The notes below the pieces were generated by a model. It saw nothing but the letters and a program-made list of their open reading frames with translations. It had not been told where the DNA came from and did no database searches. From assembly GCA_936941155.1 (NCBI GenBank), contig CAKZJE010000031.1, forward strand, positions 186,001-250,000: a stretch of DNA of 64,000 bases, written 5' to 3'. The stretch comes from an uncultured Methylomonas sp. Its GTDB lineage: Bacteria > Pseudomonadota > Gammaproteobacteria > Methylococcales > Methylomonadaceae. Numbering within the stretch: the stretch's first letter is position 1; every line of letters begins with the position of its first letter. Below are positions 25,783-64,000 of the stretch, piece by piece. The translations under genes were made by a program, and so were the position numbers.

Positions 25783-26018
25783 TATCCTCTCCTTATTTTT
25801 AATAATTTAAGAGGCATAATCAGCAGGTTGTATGCCAGAGTAATTGTATTTATAAATCAAATGCTTATCGGCTATTTTTCTGGAAAACGTATTAAACTAT
25901 GTTATAAACCACAGTTACTGGGTTATTTGCCTTATTTTGAAAAAAAGAATCGCGCTTTAACTTTCAAAAAAATGCAGTATCAGCAAATTTTCGCGCTTAA
26001 GATTGATTTTATATCTTA
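25783..26018. other. Intergenic region with no supported gene
   Basis: A 65-codon plus-strand frame (25828-26025) lacks a ribosome-binding site and family features. The rest is AT-rich promoter-like DNA leading to the 37-bp motif. Confidence 0.4.
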
Positions 26019-26055
26019 TAATTAGATATAAAGTTCAAAATATATCGTTTTATTA
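26019..26055 (+). promoter_or_regulatory. 37-bp AT-rich motif, copy 1 (putative CysB-type site)
   Basis: Begins TAATTAGATATAAA and ends TATATCGTTTTATTA. It shares length and both conserved halves with 30020-30056 and with 63044-63080 (reverse strand). It lies 56 bp before the ATG of the unknown membrane protein; a weak TAAACT follows at 26072. Confidence 0.6.
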
Positions 26056-26110
26056 ATTAATGAAAACATTTTAAACTCTCAGCCATCAACCAATTATTTT
26101 CGACAGAGGC

Positions 26111-26923
26111 ATGATGGCTATTTTTATTGAATTCGTGATTGGCTCAGTCCTAGCGATTTATTTTCATTGGGTTTTGCAATACGAACAGGCGGCTTACACC
26201 TTGTTTGGTATGGGGATTTTGCTGTCATTGGCAACGTATTTGCTGCAACATCAAATTTTAACGTCACAAAAAGCCTTAGCTGAGCTGTATCAAAGCAATC
26301 ATGAACTTTCCAGCGCGTTAGCCGCGATTAACGACCCCGAATGTGAGCTGAAATCCCAAGAACTTTTAGCCGATTTCAAAAAAAATCTTGCACAATTGCA
26401 GCGCGGTTATCTATTGCTGAATGAAGCGGAGTTTTATTTGGAAGGCGTGAAAAGCGTTTCTCAAAGTAATTTGCATGTGAAAGCAGTTGATCCGTTGGAA
26501 GTGGGTTGGGAAAGTCGCGGCGCGGTGCGCAATTATTATCAGGCGAATTTGCAGGCTCTCAGTCGTGGCGTGCAAATTACCCGCGTGTTTGTGATTAGTC
26601 GGCGCGATTTGCTGAATCCTGATGTGCAAAAAATTTTGCAACAACAGCGCGATGACGGAGTGGAGGTGTTAATCACTTATCGGGAAGATTTGGCGATTAA
26701 TGTGGCAAATCAAGAGGTTTATTCGCTGGATTTTGCGATTTATGATGATGCGGTTATCACCGATCGTGGACGCGAAAAAGGTTTGTATTTTGGCAAGCGC
26801 ACTCAAAAAACGGCGGAAATTGTGAAATATCAGCGGTTATTTGAGTTGATTCATCATCATGCGCATCGTTTTTTAAGTGATGAAGAAACGGAGCAGTATT
26901 TAGTTGAGTTGGTGAATAAATAA
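26111..26923 (+). CDS. Membrane-anchored protein of unknown function
   Basis: 270 residues. Two closely spaced N-terminal helices (about 4-20 and 27-45) form a hairpin anchor, followed by a helical/coiled segment (about 50-115) and a cytoplasmic alpha/beta domain (about 120-255: SRGAVRNYYQANLQALSRGVQITRVFVISRR, YSLDFAIYDDAVITDR, LYFGKRT). The last part resembles the phospholipase-D-like or TrmB-C-terminal sensor fold but lacks an HKD motif. AGAGG precedes the ATG. It shares the 37-bp upstream motif with the sulfate transport operon, which suggests a link to sulfur regulation. Confidence 0.7.
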   Translation: MMAIFIEFVIGSVLAIYFHWVLQYEQAAYTLFGMGILLSLATYLLQHQILTSQKALAELYQSNHELSSALAAINDPECELKSQELLADFKKNLAQLQRGYLLLNEAEFYLEGVKSVSQSNLHVKAVDPLEVGWESRGAVRNYYQANLQALSRGVQITRVFVISRRDLLNPDVQKILQQQRDDGVEVLITYREDLAINVANQEVYSLDFAIYDDAVITDRGREKGLYFGKRTQKTAEIVKYQRLFELIHHHAHRFLSDEETEQYLVELVNK

Positions 26924-27220: not shown

Positions 27221-28507
27221 GTGTCAAAGATTAAATATATAGATTTATTTGCAGGAATGGGCGGTATTAGATTAGGATTTAGCCAAGCTTGTGATGAACT
27301 TGGCTTAAATCATCAGTGTGTATTTTCTTCAGAAATAAAACCGTATGCTGTCGATATTTATAAATATAATTTCAATGAACATTATATTCATGGAGATATT
27401 ACGCAAATAAATGCTAATGAGATTCCTGATTTTGATTATCTATTGGCAGGATTTCCATGCCAAGCTTTTAGTACCGCAGGAAAACAGTTAGGGTTTGACG
27501 ATATAAGAGGAACGCTATTTTTTGATGTTGCTAGAATTTTAAAAGAAAAAAAACCAAAAGGATTCATTCTGGAAAATGTCGAAGGTTTTGTAACCCATGA
27601 TAAAGAATGTAAAACAGATGAAATAGGTAGAACATTAAAAACTATTTTAAAAACTTTAAAAGATATGAATTATAAAGTTTCATGGAAAATTTTAGATGCC
27701 GCAAATTTTGGAGTTCCACAAACAAGAAAAAGAGTTTTTATAACGGGGCATTTAATCAATGAGCCAAATTTAGAAAATTTTCAATTAAAAAAAAGTAAAA
27801 TTGGTTCTATTTTAGAATATGGCTTACCAACATTAACATCTAGTTTTACTCAACAATTATTAAAATACTATAGTGTAGAAGAGCTGAAAGGTAAGTCAAT
27901 TAAAGATAAGCGCGGCGGTAGTGATAATATTCACAGTTGGGATATAGCTATAAAAGGCGAAATAAGTAAATATCAAAAAATAATCTTGGAACGACTGTTA
28001 CGCGAAAGAAGAAAAAAACATTGGGCTCAATTAAAAGGAATTGTATGGATGGATGGAATGCCTCTTACTTATAATGAAATCGCTTCGTTTTGTACTGATA
28101 TTCCTTCTGAGCAACTACAGCTACTGTTATCTGATTTAGAAACAAAAGGTTATGTAAAGTTAGAGCATCCAAAAGATATAATAACGATTGACGGAAAAAA
28201 TAAACGCCATCCAGATATAACAAAAGCTAAAGGATATAACATTGTAACTGGAAAATTAAGTTTTGAATTTAATTGCATTTTGCACCCAGAGGAAATAGCA
28301 AATACGTTAGTTGCTACTGAAGTTGATAGAATAGGTGTCATAGATGGTAAAGGAATAAGAAGGTTATCTAATAAAGAATGTTTACGTTTCTTTGGTTTTC
28401 CAGATAGCTATCAATCTAATATAGCGAATGTAAAACTCTATGATTTAATTGGCAATACAGTTGCTGTTCCAGTCGTTAAAGCTGTAGCACTAAAATTATT
28501 AGGATAA
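27221..28507 (+). CDS. DNA cytosine-5 methyltransferase
   Basis: 428 residues from a GTG start. C5-methyltransferase motifs in order: I YIDLFAGMGGIRLGF (5-20), IV with catalytic C80 (LAGFPCQAFSTAGKQLGF), VI ENV (118-120), VIII near NFGVPQTRKRVFITG, and IX/X ECLRFFGFPDSYQ ... DLIGNTVAVPVVKAVA. The target-recognition region (about 200-330) is long and carries a winged-helix-like stretch (TYNEIASFCTDIPSEQLQLLLSDLETKGYVKL). It is convergent with, and overlaps by 9 bp, a restriction endonuclease gene, so it is the protective enzyme of a type II system. Markedly AT-rich compared with neighbours, consistent with transfer. Confidence 0.92.
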   Translation: MSKIKYIDLFAGMGGIRLGFSQACDELGLNHQCVFSSEIKPYAVDIYKYNFNEHYIHGDITQINANEIPDFDYLLAGFPCQAFSTAGKQLGFDDIRGTLFFDVARILKEKKPKGFILENVEGFVTHDKECKTDEIGRTLKTILKTLKDMNYKVSWKILDAANFGVPQTRKRVFITGHLINEPNLENFQLKKSKIGSILEYGLPTLTSSFTQQLLKYYSVEELKGKSIKDKRGGSDNIHSWDIAIKGEISKYQKIILERLLRERRKKHWAQLKGIVWMDGMPLTYNEIASFCTDIPSEQLQLLLSDLETKGYVKLEHPKDIITIDGKNKRHPDITKAKGYNIVTGKLSFEFNCILHPEEIANTLVATEVDRIGVIDGKGIRRLSNKECLRFFGFPDSYQSNIANVKLYDLIGNTVAVPVVKAVALKLLG

Positions 28508-29149
28508 CTGATTAACTAAATAAACACCTTTATTTTCAGAAATTTTGTTTAAATAGATTTCTTCAGTGTCGTACAATGCTTTAACGAATTCTTCTTTAGA
28601 CTTAAATGGTTTATAAATTGATTTTGATGAATACCAAGATGCCGGTCTAATATTATAAATAACATCGCGCTTAACTTGAGTTTTTAATGGGAATCGTTTA
28701 CTTGCACAACAAATTTCCCAAATATTCTTTAACCAGATGTTTTTAATAATTAATTGACCTTGATTTAAGACATATCCAAAAATTAAATAATCAGAATAAA
28801 TTCTTTCTGGACATGTAGCCAATGATTCGCAATAAGATTGAAAATTTGCAATGTCAAAATTAGCACCTGCACTCATGTCAAAACTCTTTATTTCCAGCAA
28901 AGATACTTTGTTGTCTTGTGAGTGTAGGAAGAAATCGGGAAACGATTGAGAGTTAGATGGTGCACTATAAACAATTTCGTTTTTGAGCATCCATTTTTCA
29001 AGCCATTCTTGAATATGTCCGCCGATACCATCTTTGCTATTTATTTCAAACTCAATGTCATTCATTTTGAATGTAATTGTTCCTACAAGACCATTATTAA
29101 CCTCAACTAATAAAGAGTCATACATTCTTTTTGCAACATCACTTGGCAT
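28499..29149 (-). CDS. Type II restriction endonuclease, NgoBV-like
   Basis: 216 residues. The N-terminal region (MPSDVAKRMYDSLLVEVNNGLVGTITF ... IGGHIQEWLEKWM) resembles NgoBV-family endonucleases, and SFPDFFLHSQDNKVSLLEIKSF supplies the PD-x(n)-E-x-K catalytic core. NgoBV recognises GGNNCC; specificity here is only inferred. It is convergent with the C5-methyltransferase. AT-rich like its partner. Confidence 0.7.
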   Translation of the reverse strand: MPSDVAKRMYDSLLVEVNNGLVGTITFKMNDIEFEINSKDGIGGHIQEWLEKWMLKNEIVYSAPSNSQSFPDFFLHSQDNKVSLLEIKSFDMSAGANFDIANFQSYCESLATCPERIYSDYLIFGYVLNQGQLIIKNIWLKNIWEICCASKRFPLKTQVKRDVIYNIRPASWYSSKSIYKPFKSKEEFVKALYDTEEIYLNKISENKGVYLVNQLS

Positions 29150-29275: not shown

Positions 29276-29932
29276 TTACTTCACCACCAACCGATAAACC
29301 TGCTCGTGTAATTGCGTTAAACCGCGTTTTTGTAACGCCGCCTCTTGCGCCAGCACATCTTCATTCGCCAACAAATCAATCTCACACCACGCTTGATAAA
29401 GCCTAGCGATTTCTGTAGGTGGCAAACTAAAGGGCGGTCCCGACATCTCAACTTGCGGATAATTAAGCGCGATCAACAAAATATTCACATCAGATTTCAG
29501 CAACTGCGCCATTTTTGCCACATAATCCAGCCGCATTTGTGCAGGCAAAGCCACCAACGCCCCGCGATCATAAACAGCATCAATTTCTCCTACGTCATCA
29601 AGTTGCAAGGCAAAAAAATCGCCGCATAAAACTTGTAATCCCTCAATTTCATAGCTCAAAAATTCACCTTGTTGGCGAATATTCGCTTGCAAGTCGTTTT
29701 CGGCAAAAAAAGCCGCAACTGCCAACGGGCTTAATTCGATTCCCAGCACTTGAAAACCTTGTTTCAGCAGCCACAGCATATCGTTAGTTTTGCCGCACAT
29801 CGGCACAAATACACGCCCGCCGGATTTTATTCCCAATTTCGACCCATATTGCTGCAAATGCGGATGAATTTCATCGCGATGAAAACCGATTTGATTCATT
29901 TTCCAACGCTCGTGCCAAAAATTATGTTCCAT
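29276..29932 (-). CDS. tpm: Thiopurine S-methyltransferase
   Basis: 218 residues, normal for bacterial Tpm. Family features: NFWHERWKMNQIGFHRDEIHP at the N-terminus, VFVPMCGKTNDMLWLLKQG (SAM-binding loop), GIELSPLAVAAFF, and YDRGALVALPAQMR. It transfers a methyl group from SAM to thiols, and in bacteria it can methylate selenium and tellurium compounds. It lies just upstream of the sulfate transport operon but on the other strand. Confidence 0.93.
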   Translation of the reverse strand: MEHNFWHERWKMNQIGFHRDEIHPHLQQYGSKLGIKSGGRVFVPMCGKTNDMLWLLKQGFQVLGIELSPLAVAAFFAENDLQANIRQQGEFLSYEIEGLQVLCGDFFALQLDDVGEIDAVYDRGALVALPAQMRLDYVAKMAQLLKSDVNILLIALNYPQVEMSGPPFSLPPTEIARLYQAWCEIDLLANEDVLAQEAALQKRGLTQLHEQVYRLVVK

Positions 29933-30019
29933 TTGCTGCTCCTGTTTTACACATTATTTGCAACGATTATATCCCATCGTTATTGCCCGCCCTTCTTATA
30001 ATTCAGGCTGTTAATCTAA

Positions 30020-30056
30020 TAATGAGATATAAATATCTTTTTATATCGTTTTATTA
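30020..30056 (+). promoter_or_regulatory. 37-bp AT-rich motif, copy 2 (putative CysB-type site of sbp)
   Basis: Begins TAATGAGATATAAA and ends TATATCGTTTTATTA. It differs from copy 1 mainly in the central eight bases. CATAAT at 30076-30081 is a good -10 whose first base is 56 bp from the motif start; the -35 region is poor, as expected for an activator-dependent promoter. sbp starts at 30121. Confidence 0.7.
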
Positions 30057-30120
30057 TAAAAAGTGAGTTGTTTATCATAATCTCAACACGAATTTTTATT
30101 TCATTTGAGGCTCTAGGATT

Positions 30121-31125
30121 ATGAAAACTCAAACATGGCTTATCCGCAGCCTAATTGCGGCAACGATTTTAATCAGCGCGAATGCGTTTGCTGATCGCAG
30201 TTTATTGAATGTGTCGTATGACCCGACGCGCGAACTGTATCAAGAATATAACCAAGAATTTGCTAAATATTGGCAAGGAAAAACCAAAGAAACGGTGACG
30301 ATTCAGCAATCGCACGGTGGCGCGGGCAAACAAGCGAGAGCAGTGATTGATGGTTTAGATGCGGATGTTTTAACGCTGGCATTGTCGTATGACATTGATC
30401 AAATTGCGAAAAAAGCGAAATTATTGCCAAAAGAGTGGCAAAAACGCTTGCCGCATAACAGCACGCCTTACACGTCCACGATTGTGTTTTTGGTGCGCAA
30501 AGGCAATCCGAAAAAAATCAAAGATTGGGGCGATTTAGTGAAGCCGGGTATTGCGGTGATTACGCCGAATCCTAAAACTTCAGGCGGAGCGCGTTACAAC
30601 TATTTAGCGGCGTGGGCGTATGCAGAAAAAACCTTGGGTTCTCCTGCGGCTGCGAAAGATTTTATGAAAAAATTGTTTAAAAACGTGCCAGTTTTGGATT
30701 CTGGGGCGCGAGGCGCAACCACCACTTTCATTCAACGCGGGATTGGTGATGTGTTGTTGGCTTGGGAAAATGAAGCGTTTTTAGCGATTAATGAACTCGG
30801 CGAAGGCAAATTTGACATTATTGTGCCACCGACCAGTATTTTGGCAGAAACGCCTGTCGCTGTGGTTGACAATGTGGTGAATAAACACGGCACGCGTGAT
30901 TTGGCGGAAGCGTATTTAAATTATTTGTATTCGCCAGCGGGACAAAAATTAGCGGCAAAACATTATTACCGTCCGATTTCGCCTGAATTAGCCGATCCAA
31001 AAGACTTGGCGCGTTTTCCAAAATTGCATTTATTTACCGTGAATGAGCAGTTTGGGGGTTGGGAAAAAGCGCAGAAAGACCATTTTGATGACGGCGGCTC
31101 GTTTGACCAGATTTATACGCCTTAG
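30121..31125 (+). CDS. sbp: Sulfate ABC transporter substrate-binding protein
   Basis: 334 residues. Signal peptide ([15 protein letters not shown]) then the Sbp/CysP start [66 protein letters not shown] and [23 protein letters not shown] are the anion-binding signatures of this family. It captures sulfate (and thiosulfate) in the periplasm for CysTWA. First gene of the operon, downstream of the 37-bp motif and a CATAAT box. A 33-bp hairpin repeat separates it from cysT. Confidence 0.95.
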
Positions 31126-31133
31126 TGAGATTC

Positions 31134-31166
31134 AAACCTTCCAGGTTTTAAAAACCTGGAAGGTTT
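31134..31166. repeat. AAACCTTCCAGG hairpin repeat between sbp and cysT
   Basis: Perfect inverted repeat with 16-base arms (AAACCTTCCAGGTTTT). It probably limits transcription past sbp so that binding protein exceeds permease. Its right arm supplies AAGG ahead of a possible GTG start at 31169. A diverged copy lies in the 3' end of ampG (59320). Confidence 0.85.
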
Positions 31167-31195
31167 AAGTGCAAAAACATCAGCAGAAATTAAAC

Positions 31196-32023
31196 ATGAG
31201 ACAAAGTCACGTTATACAAGGCTTCGCGCCGACACTGGGTTTAACCATCGTCTATTTAAGCTTGGTGGTACTCATTCCGTTAAGCACCTTAGTTTTCAAA
31301 AGCTTGCAATTAACGTGGGACGAATATCTAAACGTGATTGGCAACGCGCGGGTGATCGCTTCGTTTCGCGTTAGTTTTCTCACCGCCTTAGCCGCCGCCA
31401 CGATTACCTCTTTTTTCGGCTTTATTATAGCGTGGGTATTGGTGCGCTATCCGTTTCCCGGCAAACGCTTTTTAGACGCATTGATTGATTTGCCCTTCGC
31501 GCTGCCGACTGCGGTTGCGGGGATTGTGTTAGCAACCATTTATCAACCCAGCGGCGTACTTGGTCAATTTTTGCAAGATACGTTTGATCTAAAAGTCGCT
31601 TACACACCATTAGGGATTGTGGTGGCGTTGATTTTTATCAGCTTGCCATTTGTGGTGCGCACCGTTGAGCCTGTGTTGCAAGAGTTTGATTTTACGATGG
31701 AAGAAGCTGCATCCAGCTTAGGCGCGTCACGCTGGCAAGTGTTTGTCAAAATCGTTTTCCCCAATATTTTCCCCGCCTTATTGACAGGATTTGCCTTAAG
31801 TTTTGCGCGTGGGATTGGTGAATACGGCTCGGTGATTTTTATCGCTGGAAATTTGCCCTACGTTTCTGAAGTGATTCCGTTGTTGATTGTCACCAAGCTG
31901 GAACAATACGATTACGCGGGAGCAACAGTGATTGCGCTAACCATGTTAGTTGCGTCATTTTTATTATTGCTGCTGATTAACTTGCTGCAAATGTGGGTGC
32001 GCAAACGTTCAGGACAACTGTAG
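31196..32023 (+). CDS. cysT: Sulfate ABC transporter permease CysT
   Basis: 275 residues from ATG 31196 (MRQSHVIQGFAPTLGLTIVYLS), which matches the usual CysT N-terminus; a GTG at 31169 with AAGG upstream would add nine residues. Six membrane helices. The EAA loop EEAASSLGASRWQVFVKIVFPNIFPAL contacts the ATPase CysA. Conserved stretch DLPFALPTAVAGIVLATIY. Partner permease is CysW, 337 bp downstream across a repeat-rich gap. Confidence 0.94.
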   Translation: MRQSHVIQGFAPTLGLTIVYLSLVVLIPLSTLVFKSLQLTWDEYLNVIGNARVIASFRVSFLTALAAATITSFFGFIIAWVLVRYPFPGKRFLDALIDLPFALPTAVAGIVLATIYQPSGVLGQFLQDTFDLKVAYTPLGIVVALIFISLPFVVRTVEPVLQEFDFTMEEAASSLGASRWQVFVKIVFPNIFPALLTGFALSFARGIGEYGSVIFIAGNLPYVSEVIPLLIVTKLEQYDYAGATVIALTMLVASFLLLLLINLLQMWVRKRSGQL

Positions 32024-32057
32024 GTGCGAATTTATTTAATTTTCATTCCTTAACTGA

Positions 32058-32326
32058 CATTACGCATAAGTAAAAAATATCCACGAAAAACACGAAAAAC
32101 ACGAAAAACACGAAAAACACGAAAAAATAAGCGCAAAAAAAAGCAGCAATATAGCGGTTTCAAGTCAAAGTGATAGTTTTTTCTGTTGTAGAGACGTTGC
32201 ACTGCAACGTCTCTACGGTATCAGGCATATTGTATTGAGTTAAAAATGCTATAGCTGGTATTTGATATTTTTTGGATAACTAGACTTTCGTGCTTTTCGT
32301 GTCTTTCGTGGACAATGCGTAACATC
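32058..32326. mobile_element. Inverted-repeat element with CACGAAAAA tandem array
   Basis: Left end TTACGCAT ... TCCACGAAAAACACG and right end, read on the minus strand, TTACGCAT ... TCCACGAAAGACACG form inverted termini. The left end holds about four tandem CACGAAAAAC units (32082-32127). The middle contains the GTAGAGACG hairpin. No coding capacity. It sits between cysT and cysW. Confidence 0.6.
32188..32216. repeat. GTAGAGACG hairpin repeat, variant
   Basis: GTAGAGACGTTGCA and TGCAACGTCTCTAC, 14-bp perfect arms around one base. It is nested inside the 32058-32326 element. Confidence 0.85.
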
Positions 32327-32360
32327 AATCCATAATTTATTTCTTAATAGAGAAGACAAA

Positions 32361-33215
32361 ATGCACGTTGCAACGGCTAAAACTTTTACTGCGCAACCGA
32401 CGTTTCGTGATCCGCAATGGTTACGTTTCGCGCTGATTTTGATTGCGGTGTCTTTCATCGTGTTGTTTTTATGCGTTCCGCTGATTTTGGTACTCAGCGA
32501 AGCGTTTGCCAAAGGTTGGCAAGCTTACGCAAACGCCTTATCACAACCGGAGGCGATTTCTGCGGTGAAATTAACCTTATTAACCGCGCTTGCCACTGTG
32601 CCGCTAAACACTTTATTTGGTTTATGCGCAGCTTGGGCAATTACCCGTTTTGAATTTCCTGGCAAAAGCTTATTAACCACGTTGATTGATTTGCCGTTTT
32701 CGGTGTCGCCCGTTATTTCCGGTTTGATTTTCGTGTTGATGTTTGGCGCACAAGGCTGGTTTGGAGAATGGTTATCGGCACACGACATCAAAATTATTTT
32801 TGCGATTCCCGGCATTATTTTGGCAACGTTGTTTATCACGTTTCCCTTTGTGGCGCGGGAATTAATCCCGTTGATGCAAGAAATGGGCAGCGAAGAAGAG
32901 GAAGCGGCGTTGTCGCTGGGTGCGGGAGCGTGGACAACGTTTTTCAAAATCACCTTGCCGAATATCAAATGGGGATTGTTGTATGGCGTGTTGCTATGTA
33001 ACGCGCGGGCAATGGGCGAATTCGGCGCGGTGTCGGTGGTGTCTGGACATATTCGTGGGCTTACCAACACCCTGCCGCTGCATATTGAAGTGAGCTACAA
33101 CGAATATGATTTTGTCGGCGCGTTTGCCAGTGCTTCCATTTTGGCAGGGCTAGCGATTGTGACCTTGATTTTAAAAAGCTTTTTGGAATGGAAACAAAGC
33201 CAAAATCGAGTCTGA
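32361..33215 (+). CDS. cysW: Sulfate ABC transporter permease CysW
   Basis: 284 residues, six membrane helices. The EAA loop is [28 protein letters not shown]; family stretches include [20 protein letters not shown] and [20 protein letters not shown] with the downstream [16 protein letters not shown] typical of CysW. It forms the membrane channel with CysT. A foreign-looking GIY-YIG gene separates it from cysA. Confidence 0.95.
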
Positions 33216-33284
33216 GGAATGTTTCAAGAGGAGTAATTTATTAGCGATATAATTAGAGCTTTTAATCACTCTTTTAGTTTTAAA

Positions 33285-34307
33285 ATGAACAATCGCGGAT
33301 ATATTTATATTTTAGCTAATGGCTCAATGCCAAATTTAATAAAAATTGGCAAAACAACAAGATCATCTGCAAAAAGAGTAGAAGAACTATCCAGTCATAC
33401 AGGAGTCCCTACTCGCTTTATACTTGTTTATGAGCAATTTTTTGAAGATTGTTCAGTAGCAGAAGATTATTTACATACGACTTTAAGTAAATATCGCCAT
33501 GAAAAAAATAGAGAGTTTTTTAGAGTTTCTGCCAGCAAAGTAGTTCACATAATTTTAAAAATGTCTGGACGAATTGATGCTTTCGATGCAGCAGAAGCCG
33601 ATGAAATTTTCGTTAATGATAGTGAATTAAAAGAAATAGAATCTTATGGAAATACTCTTTGTAAAAATGCTTTAAGTTATCGGCTTGGATTATTTATTCC
33701 TCAAGATAAAGAAAAAGCAATAGATTTATATCGTCAAGCAGCAGAACAAGGTAGTTTAGAAGGATATAAACAATTAATTTATTTTGCCGATTTATTAAAT
33801 ATTGGTAATGAACCTCAAGATACTATAAATCTTTATAAAGAAGCAGCTTTATTAGGTTATTCAAAAGCTTATGAGAAGCTAGGTATGTTGTACGCTTATG
33901 GTGATGGCGTGCCTAAAAATAGGAAAAAAGCTTTTGATTATTATAAAGAAGGAGGTAAACGTGGAAATTATTATTGCTGGTTAAAAATGGCTACAACTTT
34001 ATTTTATGAAGATACATCTAATTATAGTAGATGTATTAAATTGTTTTTCAAACATCGAAAGATAGAAATGAATAAAACTATTTTAGATGATGAATATTTA
34101 TTTTCTTTGTATTGCATTCAATATATTGAATATTGTTTAAGAAAAAAACTAATTCCTATAAAAGATGGGGTTCAGCAAATGAAATTAATAAAAAAATCTA
34201 TGGTTGAATATTTAAAAAAAGAGTTAAAAGGAAAACAAGAGGAGTATTTTAATTTGCAAGATATTTATTATAAAAAAACTCTACAATGGGTTAGAGAAAA
34301 TTTATAA
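33285..34307 (+). CDS. GIY-YIG (T5orf172/MUG113) nuclease-like protein with Sel1 repeats
   Basis: 340 residues. N-terminal GIY-YIG variant (about 4-95): GYIYILANGSMPNLIKIGKTTRS, RVEELSSHTGVP, AEDYLHTTLSKYRHEKNREFF, matching the T5orf172/MUG113 subfamily with the catalytic Tyr/Arg/Glu pattern. Sel1-like repeats follow (about 130-225: YRLGLFIPQDKEKAIDLYRQAAEQGS, YGDGVPKNRKKAFDYYKEGGKRG), then a Lys-rich helical tail. It is much more AT-rich than the flanking cys genes, has no clear ribosome-binding site, and interrupts the sulfate operon. Function unknown; nucleic-acid cleavage or defence is possible. Confidence 0.8.
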   Translation: MNNRGYIYILANGSMPNLIKIGKTTRSSAKRVEELSSHTGVPTRFILVYEQFFEDCSVAEDYLHTTLSKYRHEKNREFFRVSASKVVHIILKMSGRIDAFDAAEADEIFVNDSELKEIESYGNTLCKNALSYRLGLFIPQDKEKAIDLYRQAAEQGSLEGYKQLIYFADLLNIGNEPQDTINLYKEAALLGYSKAYEKLGMLYAYGDGVPKNRKKAFDYYKEGGKRGNYYCWLKMATTLFYEDTSNYSRCIKLFFKHRKIEMNKTILDDEYLFSLYCIQYIEYCLRKKLIPIKDGVQQMKLIKKSMVEYLKKELKGKQEEYFNLQDIYYKKTLQWVRENL

Positions 34308-34339
34308 CAGTTACCCAAATAAATGAAAAATAAAAAACT

Positions 34340-35389
34340 ATGAGCATTTTACTTAACAATATCAGCAAAAACTTCGGTCAATTTGCCGCGCTATACGACA
34401 TTAATCTGGAAATTCCTGAAGGCGAGTTGGTGGCATTATTAGGGCCGTCCGGCTGTGGCAAAACTACGCTGCTACGCATTATTGCCGGATTGGAAAATCC
34501 AGACGCAGGCTCGGTGGCGTTAAATGGTAAAAATATTACCGATCAACATGTTAGCAATCGCGGCATCGGTTTTGTGTTTCAACATTATGCTTTATTCAGA
34601 CACATGACTGTTTTCGATAACGTTGCGTTTGGTTTGCGGGTGAAGCCGAAAAAACAACGTCCTTCTGAGGCGACAATTGCGAAAAAAGTTCACGCGCTTT
34701 TGGATTTAGTGCAATTGGATTGGTTACACGACCGTTTTCCCGATCAACTTTCCGGTGGACAACGCCAACGAATTGCATTGGCGCGAGCTTTAGCTGTTGA
34801 ACCGTCCGTGCTGTTATTGGATGAACCTTTTGGCGCGTTAGATGCCAGTGTGCGGAAAGATTTGCGTTTGTGGTTGCGGCATTTGCATCAAGAATTGCAC
34901 GTTACCAGCATTTTCGTGACTCATGATCAAGAAGAAGCGATGGAAGTTGCTAGCCAAGTGGTTGTTTTGAATCATGGCAAAATTGAACAACAAGGCATTC
35001 CAAGTGAAATTTATGACCATCCGCAAAATGCGTTTGTTTCCAAATTTATTGGTCAAACCAACGTGTTTCATGTGGAAAAAGAAGACAGTCAATGGCTGGA
35101 ACACGCAGGTATTGTGTTAGATGACCCACAAGGCTTGATTGCGCATGTGCGTCCGCATGATATTCAGATTGAAAAAGCGCAAAAACCAGAGGAATCACCG
35201 ATTATTTTGAAAGATTGGCAACATTTAGGCGCAACGATTCGGCTGGAATTAAGCAAAGTTCAGTCGCAAGCTAACGCGGCGAATCATATTGTGTATGCGC
35301 AAATGCCAAATGAGCAGTTTAAAAACCTCAATTTGAATCGCGGCGATCATGTTTTATTACAAATAAAACAAGCACATTGGTTTAATTAA
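34340..35389 (+). CDS. cysA: Sulfate ABC transporter ATPase CysA
   Basis: 349 residues. Walker [10 protein letters not shown] (about 36-44), Q-loop VFQHYALF, signature [19 protein letters not shown], Walker [14 protein letters not shown]-loop [12 protein letters not shown], then a TOBE-type regulatory domain (about 240-349, [11 protein letters not shown]). It powers CysT/CysW. The operon terminator lies about 100 bp downstream. Confidence 0.95.
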
Positions 35390-61807: not shown

Positions 61808-62713
61808 TTAATAATTTGCGTAACTATACTCGCGTACTTGCCGTTTATGGCTGACCAACCCCGCATTAGGCTTAGACAGTTTTTCATAATAAGCACCTTG
61901 CACAAAATTAAAACCGATTTGTGTTGCACATAAATCCTGTTCTGGTTGCGTCACCTCTTGAAAAACAATTTCGCCCCCTAATGAAGAAACTATTTCTTGC
62001 AACTGGCGCAATGCACTCGACAAAGTTGAGTGTTGTGCCAAGTTGCCGTAGTTTTCATGCGGAGCAGTCACGCAAACAAAATCAGGTGATAACAGCTTGA
62101 TTAAATTCAATATTCGATCGGCGGAAATTAAATGTCCAATATTTAACGCAATTTTGTAGCCGCAATCGCGATAATTATTTAAACCTTTTAATAATTCGTG
62201 ATGATGAACTTCATGGATTCCGCTCGCGGATAAAGAAATCACCACGTTTTTAGTTTCCAAGCCACAATGTAAAACAGTTTCTTCAAAATAAGTGCCGTGA
62301 TGATGTTTCACGCCAATAATATGGCGCGGGTCTACTTCTAAGCACAAAAAACTGTTTCGATAGCTGACTCCCAACCAATTTAATAAATGCACAGTTCGGC
62401 ATAAACGATCAAAATTGATAATTGAGCTGAAGTCGATTTTTTGCTGTCCCGGCTCGCAACTTAATAAATTTTCAATTTCAAAAGTTTGTTGCTGATGAAA
62501 AAAATTAGGCGAGGTGACAAGTTTTGCTTTGTGACCTGCAATAAAACTTGGATTAGCTCTCTCACGCACGGGCGTAAGCACACTGTCTAAACGATTTTTG
62601 CCAAATAATCCACTCACAGAACCGGCTTGCAAAACCAAAGGGCGAAAATCAAAACTGTGTTCTTGAGCGAATCTGTCATTAAAATAATCAACTAATTGTT
62701 GTAGCGACATCAT
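61808..62713 (-). CDS. Degenerate EAL-domain protein
   Basis: 301 residues. The C-terminal half keeps the EAL TIM-barrel layout (FLCLEVDPRHIIG, VISLSASGIHEVHHHELLKGLNNYRDCGYKIALNIGH, LLSPDFVCVTA, IVFQEVTQPEQDLCATQIGFNFVQGAYY, the last equivalent to the final LG-x-x-x-x-QG-x-x-x). The EAL triad and several metal ligands are missing or changed, so phosphodiesterase activity is unlikely; a c-di-GMP-binding or scaffold role is possible. AAAGGA lies before the two start ATGs. Monocistronic. Confidence 0.7.
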   Translation of the reverse strand: MMSLQQLVDYFNDRFAQEHSFDFRPLVLQAGSVSGLFGKNRLDSVLTPVRERANPSFIAGHKAKLVTSPNFFHQQQTFEIENLLSCEPGQQKIDFSSIINFDRLCRTVHLLNWLGVSYRNSFLCLEVDPRHIIGVKHHHGTYFEETVLHCGLETKNVVISLSASGIHEVHHHELLKGLNNYRDCGYKIALNIGHLISADRILNLIKLLSPDFVCVTAPHENYGNLAQHSTLSSALRQLQEIVSSLGGEIVFQEVTQPEQDLCATQIGFNFVQGAYYEKLSKPNAGLVSHKRQVREYSYANY

Positions 62714-62893
62714 ATTTTCCTTTAATCAAATGGTTGTCATCAGCTGTTATGGCGCGGTGACAACGTAAGTTACTTTAGCAATCGCAATTGCTACATTCCC
62801 TCGTTTTAGGGCTAATATTCTTAAAAAACTGTTGAAATTTGCGAACATGTTTTGAATGGTTTCTGAAAAGTAATCGACTCGGTAGTCCTGTTT
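62714..62893. other. 5' leader region of the EAL-like gene
   Basis: No gene. A spaced inverted repeat GTTGTCA ... TGACAAC at 62733-62765 could fold in the mRNA leader. The 69-codon minus frame at 62747-62956 runs through the sRNA terminator and is not supported. Confidence 0.35.
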
Positions 62894-63012
62894 AAAAAAA
62901 ATAGGTGGGCGATGAAACCCACCTGAAAGACATCCTTGTCTAAAGGTTATACACATCTAACGATTTACTTCTACACACTCTGGAGATTTAAAACATGAAA
63001 GCTAATTTACTG
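62894..63012 (-). ncRNA. Candidate small RNA divergent from cysB
   Basis: Read on the minus strand: a perfect TATAAT (63024-63019) puts the start near 63012; about 119 nt later there is a strong terminator, AGGTGGG / CCCACCT (62924-62903) followed by A and eight T. Before it lies a short stem AGACA-AGGA-TGTCT (62941-62928), and further 5' an unpaired AATCTCCAGA that could pair with ribosome-binding sites. No convincing ORF. The 37-bp motif (63080-63044) lies upstream at the same spacing as at sbp. Inference from sequence only. Confidence 0.55.
62903..62924 (-). terminator. Intrinsic terminator with no upstream gene
   Basis: AGGTGGG and CCCACCT, 7-bp GC-rich stem, 8-base loop, then ATTTTTTTT on the minus strand. 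The only upstream minus-strand promoter candidate is the one at 63019-63024. Confidence 0.8.
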
Positions 63013-63018
63013 CATGGG

Positions 63019-63024
63019 ATTATA
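63019..63024 (-). promoter_or_regulatory. -10 box of the candidate sRNA
   Basis: TATAAT on the minus strand, first base 56 bp from the motif start at 63080, identical to the motif-to-CATAAT distance at sbp. Confidence 0.5.
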
Positions 63025-63043
63025 GTAGTCGCTTATTTGTTTT

Positions 63044-63080
63044 TAATAAAACGATATAAATAGATTTTATTATCTTATTA
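63044..63080 (-). promoter_or_regulatory. 37-bp AT-rich motif, copy 3 (putative CysB-type site)
   Basis: On the minus strand it reads TAATAAGATAATAAAATC ... ending TATATCGTTTTATTA; same length and conserved halves as copies 1 and 2. It lies 46 bp before the cysB ATG but faces the other way, so it may serve both activation of the minus-strand transcript and autoregulation of cysB. Confidence 0.65.
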
Positions 63081-63126
63081 TTAGATATAATAATTAAACA
63101 ATATAACACTACAGTTTTTTAAGATT

Positions 63127-64000
63127 ATGAATTTAAGCCAAATTGAACTTTTACAAGTTTTGCAAGAAACTGAATTAAATTTATCGAAAGCAGCCGATAA
63201 AATGCACGTTGTGCAATCTGCGGTGAGTCGACAATTACAGCTGTTTGAGGCTGAATTAGGCTCACCTTTGTTTGAACGTCGGGGCAAAAAATTAGTGGAT
63301 TTAACGCCTTTAGGCAGACAAGTGATGGATGAAGTGGCTGCAATTAGCCAAGCAAAACAGAATATTAAAACGATTGCGGCGGATTTTTTAGATAGCAATC
63401 AAGGCACAATTCATATTGCCACCACTCACACGCAAGCGAAATATTTTTTGCCGTTGCCGATTCAACGTTTTAGAGAAAAATATCCGGGCGTGCGAATTTA
63501 TATGTTGCAAGCCTCACCCGAACAATTAATTGACCAACTGCATAATCACAAGGCAGATGTGGCGATTTGTACTGAAAAGGTCAGTGAAGATGCAGGTTTA
63601 GTGACCAAGCATTGTTATGAATGGCATCATGCGGCGGTGATGCCACATAATCATCCTTTAGCGACTGGCGAAATTACCCGCGAGCGTTTGGCGACCTTTC
63701 CCATTTTAACCTATAGCTTTGGTTATACCGGACGCTCTATGATTGAAAAAGCCTTTAAAGACAGAGGCTTGGAACTTGATATTATTTTGGCAGCCGCTGA
63801 TACCGATGTGATAAAAACCTACGTTAGATTAGGGCTGGGCGTAGGGTTAATTGCAGGGATGGCTTATGACACGTTTGCGGACAAAGATTTAGTGGTGCGG
63901 GATTTGTCGCATTTAATTCCGCGCTCTGTCACGCGGATTGCGTATTTAAAGCAAAATTATTTGCCGCTGTATAGTCAGCATTTTATTGAAGAATTGCTGT
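63127..64000 (+). CDS. cysB: LysR-family regulator CysB (partial, runs off the window)
   Basis: 291 codons without a stop at the window edge. N-terminal winged HTH (NLSKAADKMHVVQSAVSRQLQLFEAELGSPLFERRGKKLVDLTPLG), then a type-2 periplasmic-binding-like sensor with TTHTQAKYFLP, the CysB/Cbl sulfate and O-acetylserine site, and TDVIKTYVRLGLGVGLIAGMA. CysB activates sulfate uptake and reduction genes; sbp-cysTWA and cysI in this window are its expected targets. The upstream region carries a copy of the 37-bp motif shared with sbp. Confidence 0.93.
   Translation, partial: MNLSQIELLQVLQETELNLSKAADKMHVVQSAVSRQLQLFEAELGSPLFERRGKKLVDLTPLGRQVMDEVAAISQAKQNIKTIAADFLDSNQGTIHIATTHTQAKYFLPLPIQRFREKYPGVRIYMLQASPEQLIDQLHNHKADVAICTEKVSEDAGLVTKHCYEWHHAAVMPHNHPLATGEITRERLATFPILTYSFGYTGRSMIEKAFKDRGLELDIILAAADTDVIKTYVRLGLGVGLIAGMAYDTFADKDLVVRDLSHLIPRSVTRIAYLKQNYLPLYSQHFIEELL

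What the first reader, a model, noticed from the sequence alone, without database searches (positions are those of the whole stretch)
30020..30056. 37-bp motif shared by three promoters defines a putative CysB-type regulon
Copies at 26019, 30020 and 63044 (reverse strand) have identical length, a conserved left half (TAATnAGATATAAA, with one variation in the third copy) and an invariant right half (TATATCGTTTTATTA). In two copies a good -10 box follows at exactly 56 bp from the motif start, with a poor -35, placing the motif at about -68 to -32, where LysR activators bind. One copy precedes sbp, a classic CysB target, and one lies beside cysB.
Basis: partly seen in the sequence, partly recalled or inferred. 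Interest (0 to 1): 0.72.

Follow-up and report, generated by a model that had tools for sequence, protein, structure and literature searches.

The report
CysB-type sulfur regulon with a small RNA
A roughly 42-bp DNA signal before the sulfate-uptake genes of this methane-oxidising bacterium is a genuine LysR/CysB-type activator site conserved across its bacterial family, and one of its copies drives a previously uncatalogued small RNA that looks built to bind the global regulator CsrA.

Summary
The three copies are the only exact matches to the right half in the 4.26-Mb genome. They belong to a ~42-bp site, TCT-N7-AGAT-N7-aTCTAA-N2-ATATCGTTTT, conserved in most sampled Methylomonadaceae, mostly upstream of sbp (or a porin gene ~2 kb before sbp), between cysB and a divergent EAL-like gene, and before cysE/cysK-type genes. 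An independently built model finds all three window copies (E 1e-8 to 5e-5) and one weak further site beside cysE.

A -10 box (TAnnAT) sits at a fixed offset in 65 of 84 sites; the three window copies fit it as TAnnnT. This puts the palindrome at about -65, the textbook LysR position.

Copy 3 faces away from cysB. It drives a ~120-nt RNA (63014-62895, minus strand) with a CsrA-type hairpin (AGACAAGGAUGUCU) and a strong terminator. Relatives carry the same RNA: 30 of 34 model hits lie just downstream of such a site, and in several genomes it stands alone. It is not in Rfam at the curated cut-off.

CysB as the binder is inferred from gene context, co-occurrence and architecture. CsrA binding is inferred from sequence only. 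Nothing here is measured.

The parts
26014..26055 (+). CysB-type site A, upstream of the 270-aa gene 26111-26923
   Evidence: Matrix score 44.9; model R1, built only from other genomes, E=2.1e-7
26072..26077 (+). putative -10 (TAAACT) of site A promoter
   Evidence: Lies at the conserved -10 offset
26111..26923 (+). Target A: 270-aa protein with a probable membrane segment, no Pfam/NCBIfam match; clear homologues only in the genus
   Evidence: In G001 it lies in the order site - RNA - EAL-like - this gene - site - sbp
30015..30056 (+). CysB-type site B, upstream of sbp
   Evidence: Matrix score 45.1; R1 E=5.4e-5; conserved at sbp of relatives
30073..30078 (+). putative -10 (TATCAT) of sbp
   Evidence: Conserved offset; replaces CATAAT at 30076
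30121..35389 (+). Target B: sbp-cysT-cysW-(inserted GIY-YIG/Sel1-like gene 33285-34307)-cysA sulfate transporter
   Evidence: sbp by NCBIfam subfamily models, E=1.8e-150; ORFs; cysTWA matched in relatives
63044..63085 (-). CysB-type site C, between cysB and the divergent RNA/EAL-like gene, reading leftwards
   Evidence: Matrix score 48.9; R1 E=1.4e-8; same place and direction in relatives
63022..63027 (-). putative -10 (TACTAT) of the RNA/EAL-like promoter
62895..63014 (-). Candidate small RNA (about 120 nt), start and end inferred
   Evidence: Conserved in 28 of 61 family genomes by model R2 (window copy was in the training set); 30 of 34 hits have a site 21-153 bp upstream
62928..62941 (-). 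CsrA-type hairpin AGACAAGGATGTCT (GGA in loop)
   Evidence: consensus RUACARGGAUGU quoted in PMC7652899
62893..62924 (-). intrinsic terminator AGGTGGGTTTCATCGCCCACCT-ATTTTTTTT
61808..62713 (-). EAL-like gene (degenerate, no DDFG motif), conserved member of the regulon
   Evidence: Pfam EAL 6.5e-5, below the curated cut-off; family alignment; site upstream of orthologues
63127..63999 (+). cysB (runs on past the window end)
   Evidence: NCBIfam CysB-family subfamily model best, 1.1e-95, bit score under the curated cut-off (window copy is incomplete)

Best explanation
The motif is the binding site of a CysB-family LysR activator. A CysB tetramer probably holds the palindrome TCT-N7-AGA, centred near -65, with one dimer. 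The second dimer touches aTCTAAnnATATCG just upstream of the -35 position, where it would recruit RNA polymerase to promoters with a poor -35 and a TAnnAT -10. When sulfur is short (inferred, from Salmonella/E. coli CysB and its inducer N-acetylserine) it would switch on sulfate uptake (sbp-cysTWA, porin), cysteine synthesis genes in relatives, the 26111 protein, and a ~120-nt RNA followed by an EAL-like gene. On copy 3 the palindrome lies where cysB's own promoter would be, so it probably also self-regulates cysB. Shown: site conservation, fixed spacing to the -10, target genes, and the conserved RNA with terminator. Inferred: CysB as the binder, the sulfur signal, and CsrA as the RNA's partner.
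For: Exact copies only here in the genome. Model R1, made from 20 sites of other genomes, ranks the three copies top in the whole genome. Conserved upstream of sbp and beside cysB. TCT-N7-AGA fits the LysR T-N11-A pattern, and the CysB structure paper proposes paired short half-sites of BenM type, ATAC-N7-GTAT. Fixed -10 at one offset in 65 of 84 non-redundant sites. Co-occurrence with cysB, Fisher p about 1e-10, uncorrected for kinship. Further targets cysE, cysK/M-type, cysT, porin in relatives. Only 2 of 274 genomes sampled across the class match at E<=1e-4, both in this family.
Against: Co-occurrence with sbp is as good as with cysB. Four genomes have a motif hit without a cysB hit above the threshold used (one of these motif hits is a 23-bp fragment), and one has cysB without the motif. 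E. coli and Salmonella CysB sites have a very weak consensus, so such a sharp site is unusual for CysB. The sulfate-reduction genes cysDNHIJ were not recognised among the sites of this genome. Several other LysR candidates exist in the genome. No binding or expression data.
Confidence: 0.85

Rival explanations
1. The site is bound by another LysR protein (a Cbl-like or unlinked regulator) and cysB is only a neighbour or a target.
For: Several LysR candidates per genome. A few genomes have the site without a cysB hit above threshold. Some genomes hold two cysB paralogues.
Against: The site repeatedly lies in the cysB promoter region of different genomes; cysB is the only LysR gene seen adjacent to it here; most recognised targets with a known role are in sulfur or cysteine metabolism.
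Confidence: 0.1
2. The minus-strand RNA is only the attenuated 5' leader of the EAL-like gene: the terminator is regulated in cis and there is no free-standing function.
For: In most genomes the EAL-like gene follows on the same strand, and the Methylovulum-type loci lack the RNA and have the gene directly behind the site.
Against: In G063 and G003:C11 the RNA has the site and terminator but no same-strand gene of 100 aa or more just behind it; in G035, G030:C165 and G079 the RNA also occurs without an EAL-like gene behind it.
Confidence: 0.35
3. The three copies are dispersed repeats (a mobile or REP-like element) rather than regulatory sites.
For: High similarity of three copies within 37 kb; short 28-bp look-alikes are dispersed in G062 and G012.
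Against: Similarity ends with the site, the -10 is at a fixed offset, middle bases differ, and orthologous promoters carry the site in many genomes.
Confidence: 0.02

Closest known systems
CysB regulon of Salmonella/E. coli (CysB-binding sites at cysP, cysJIH, cysK, cysB)
   Same: LysR activator of sulfate uptake and cysteine genes; site upstream of -35; site near cysB itself
   Different: Known sites are 19-bp half-sites with very weak consensus (PMC11329422). Here the 42-bp site is sharply conserved and targets include an alginate-export-type porin, an EAL-like protein and a small RNA
General LysR T-N11-A recognition plus activation site architecture (e.g. BenM ATAC-N7-GTAT)
   Same: Palindrome TCT-N7-AGA at about -65, second element abutting -35
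   Different: Second element ATCTAAnnATATCGTTTT is not a second palindrome of the same type
McaS-type base-pairing small RNAs and CsrB/RsmY-type RNAs that bind CsrA
   Same: ANGGA hairpin matching the CsrA consensus; 11 of 16 aligned RNAs have a second ANGGA, 28-34 nt away in 10 of them, inside the 10-63 nt bridging range
   Different: One or two ANGGA sites instead of many; CysB-type rather than GacA/UvrY-type promoter site; CCUCC in most; the window copy has one ANGGA and no CCUCC; no CsrA binding shown
CsrD (EAL-domain protein promoting CsrB decay)
   Same: Degenerate EAL-like protein encoded next to a CsrA-type RNA
   Different: No GGDEF part matched; no evidence of a role in RNA decay

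Membership tests
LysR-type activation site | Interrupted palindrome of T-N11-A type near -65 | tested here: met
   TCT-N7-AGAT in A1; centred at about -65 if the start lies 8 nt after the -10
LysR-type activation site | Second element next to -35 and a -10 at fixed spacing | tested here: met
LysR-type activation site | Protein binding and footprint | not testable with these tools
   No bench data
CysB regulon | Regulator is a CysB-family protein | tested here: inconclusive
   Gene 63127 matches CysB-family models best and co-occurs with the site, but binding is not shown
CysB regulon | Sulfate transport and cysteine genes carry the site | tested here: met
   sbp, cysT, cysK/M-type and cysE in relatives
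CysB regulon | Sulfate-reduction genes (cysDNHIJ) carry the site | tested here: inconclusive
   No such gene recognised among the loci examined, but not every hit was annotated
CsrA-binding small RNA | GGA in a hairpin loop matching RUACARGGAUGU | tested here: met
   pair C12-G19 changes to U-A in three sequences, and no shuffle reached the covariation score
CsrA-binding small RNA | CsrA encoded in the genome | tested here: met
   G000:C106:77904-78059 (-), E=4.4e-26
CsrA-binding small RNA | Multiple GGA sites (CsrB/RsmY type) | tested here: not met
   One ANGGA in the window copy, two in most relatives
CsrA-binding small RNA | Binds CsrA | not testable with these tools
   No bench data
Known Rfam family | Match at the curated cut-off | tested here: not met
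   None; weak RF02423 match (35 bits against 80) rests largely on the terminator

The most novel reading that the evidence does not exclude
Methylomonadaceae carry a CysB-controlled small RNA that binds CsrA, and perhaps pairs with ribosome-binding sites through its CCUCC, so that sulfur shortage is relayed to the Csr system; the neighbouring degenerate EAL-like protein may tune it as CsrD does for CsrB.
Probability: 0.25. Interest if true: 0.8.

Novelty: new variant of a known kind. Interest (0 to 1): 0.55.

Why it matters
It gives a sharp CysB-type site with a fixed promoter register, whereas the enterobacterial sites are described as too weak to assign with high confidence. It predicts a sulfur regulon in methane oxidisers and exposes a candidate small RNA family that may link sulfur status to the global regulator CsrA. 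The literature searches made here (CysB with methanotrophs or Methylococcales) turned up no paper that appears, from its title and abstract, to describe such a regulon; only open-licence papers were searched.

Tried and rejected
Rejected: dispersed repeat or mobile element. Rejected: -10 at +56 as the conserved register. Rejected: the Rfam hit RF02423 as a relative, since the match rests largely on the terminator stem. The first count of the hairpin pairs used the wrong columns and was redone with the right ones. The fold of the window RNA as a whole is not more stable than shuffles (z -0.68), so only the two hairpins are claimed. The small ORF 62747-62956 (-) crosses the terminator, has no family match and is not treated as a gene. 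A tblastn of the 26111 protein against plasmids gave nothing, nor did PHROGs. The partial hit G000:C66:24880 (E=0.027, 23 of 53 positions) was not followed.

Full report
Observation. The right half TATATCGTTTTATTA is exact at 26041 (+), 30042 (+) and 63044 (-). Four matches with up to 2 mismatches compare with 0.40 expected, and no shuffle reached four. There are no other exact copies in the 4.26-Mb genome.

What the unit is. CysB relatives are in named Methylococcales genomes, with Methylovulum among the closest named ones, and the kinship tables place the window genome in a family that I take to be Methylomonadaceae (inference). The upstream regions of cysB in L036, L037 and L039 carry the same block in the same direction. 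A matrix grown from 37 sites in relatives (34 distinct) gives the consensus TCTaaTtattAGATatnnaaaTCTAAttATATCgTTTTattt, with scores 22-50 against at most 10 on reversed sequence. Twenty sites from other genomes align without gaps, with TATC, GA and ATATC invariant. The palindrome TCT-N7-AGA is followed by a second TCTAA that starts 21 bp, two helical turns, after the first, and then by ATATCG.

Whole-genome test. Model R1, built only from those 20 foreign sites, ranks the three window copies first in the genome (E 1.4e-8, 2.1e-7, 5.4e-5). The next full-length hit is at C31:49083 (E 0.028), in front of an alginate-export-type porin and next to a cysE-like hexapeptide transferase gene. In 61 family genomes 42 have a hit at E 0.01. 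Among 274 genomes across the class only two match at E 1e-4, this one and G012 of the same family.

Promoter register. In 84 non-redundant sites a TAnnAT hexamer sits 58-63 bases after the first T of the site, with T 96%, A 92%, A 71%, T 93%; 65 sites peak at exactly that position. All three window copies fit as TAnnnT (TAAACT, TATCAT, TACTAT). With a start about 8 nt beyond (inferred), the palindrome is centred at -65 and the site's T-rich end covers the -35. That is the LysR arrangement (T-N11-A is discussed in PMC5002191; the BenM-like paired half-site idea for CysB is in PMC11329422).

Targets. Seventeen of 29 sbp loci in relatives have the site directly upstream. In several of the rest a hit lies about 2 kb upstream on the same strand, before a porin gene. 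Genes behind other sites fall into clusters: EAL-like protein (about 15, plus a few more distant members), alginate-export porin (13 entries, two of them the same own-genome locus and some others near-duplicates), sbp, cysK/M-type PLP enzyme (3), cysE-like transferase, cysT. The site's presence tracks cysB (38 both, 1 cysB only, 4 motif only, 18 neither; p about 1e-10) and sbp (37, 1, 5, 18) equally; these p values ignore kinship.

Copy 3 and the small RNA. Copy 3 reads away from cysB. Behind its -10 lies a stretch with an AGACAAGGATGTCT hairpin and a strong terminator. In most relatives the same stretch lies between the site and the EAL-like gene, with CACAGGGATGT and a GC-rich terminator conserved and CCTCC frequent (11 of 16). 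The terminator stem has compensatory changes, and the hairpin's middle pair changes C-G to U-A. Model R2 finds it in 28 of 61 genomes. Of 34 hits, 30 have a CysB-type site 21-153 bp upstream on the same strand. Among the 17 hits that were not in, or duplicates of, the training set, 13 have the site (my count from the same lists). In G063 and G003:C11 no same-strand gene of 100 aa or more follows it closely, and G035, G030:C165 and G079 also carry it without an EAL-like gene behind it. This favours a free-standing small RNA over a pure leader. Methylovulum-type loci lack it. Rfam has no match at cut-off, and the one weak match rests on the terminator.

CsrA link. The SELEX consensus RUACARGGAUGU and the 10-63 nt bridging range come from PMC7652899. 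The window RNA matches 11 of 12 positions. Ten of 16 aligned RNAs contain ACA.GGATGT or ATA.GGATAT against 0.007 expected in shuffles, but the set was anchored on this element, so that number is partly by construction. CsrA is encoded in this genome. The window copy has a single ANGGA and lacks CCUCC, so it may be a reduced form.

EAL-like protein. It matches Pfam EAL only weakly, and the usual DDFG motif is absent in the alignment of 21 relatives. It is probably not a c-di-GMP phosphodiesterase (inference). CsrD, which has an EAL domain and promotes CsrB decay, is a suggestive but untested parallel.

Limits. No binding, transcription start or expression data were available. Genomes were sampled, not exhaustive, and the search over many genomes used stricter filters. 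Not every R1 hit was annotated, and gene calls were mechanical.

Noticed in passing
window 61808-62713 (-); orthologues L202-L231: Family-wide EAL-like protein lacking the DDFG motif, a conserved member of the motif's target set; function unknown.
   Followed up: partly
window 27221-29149: A DNA cytosine methyltransferase-like gene and a convergent gene that could be its restriction partner lie between the 26111 gene and sbp; in G001 26111 and sbp are adjacent, so this looks like an insertion (function by sequence look only).
   Followed up: no
window 33285-34307 (+): A GIY-YIG/Sel1-like gene (by sequence look) splits cysW from cysA in the sulfate transporter operon.
   Followed up: no
G062:C2, G012:C1, G084:C1: A 28-bp stretch matching model positions 3-30 recurs at many dispersed places with near-identical scores, probably a separate repeat.
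   Followed up: no
L257 (G018:C3:121939-122023): A strong copy of the small RNA in a genome where neither the site nor cysB was found.
   Followed up: partly
window 29276-29932 (-): Thiopurine S-methyltransferase gene divergent from sbp (NCBIfam 8.3e-82).
   Followed up: no
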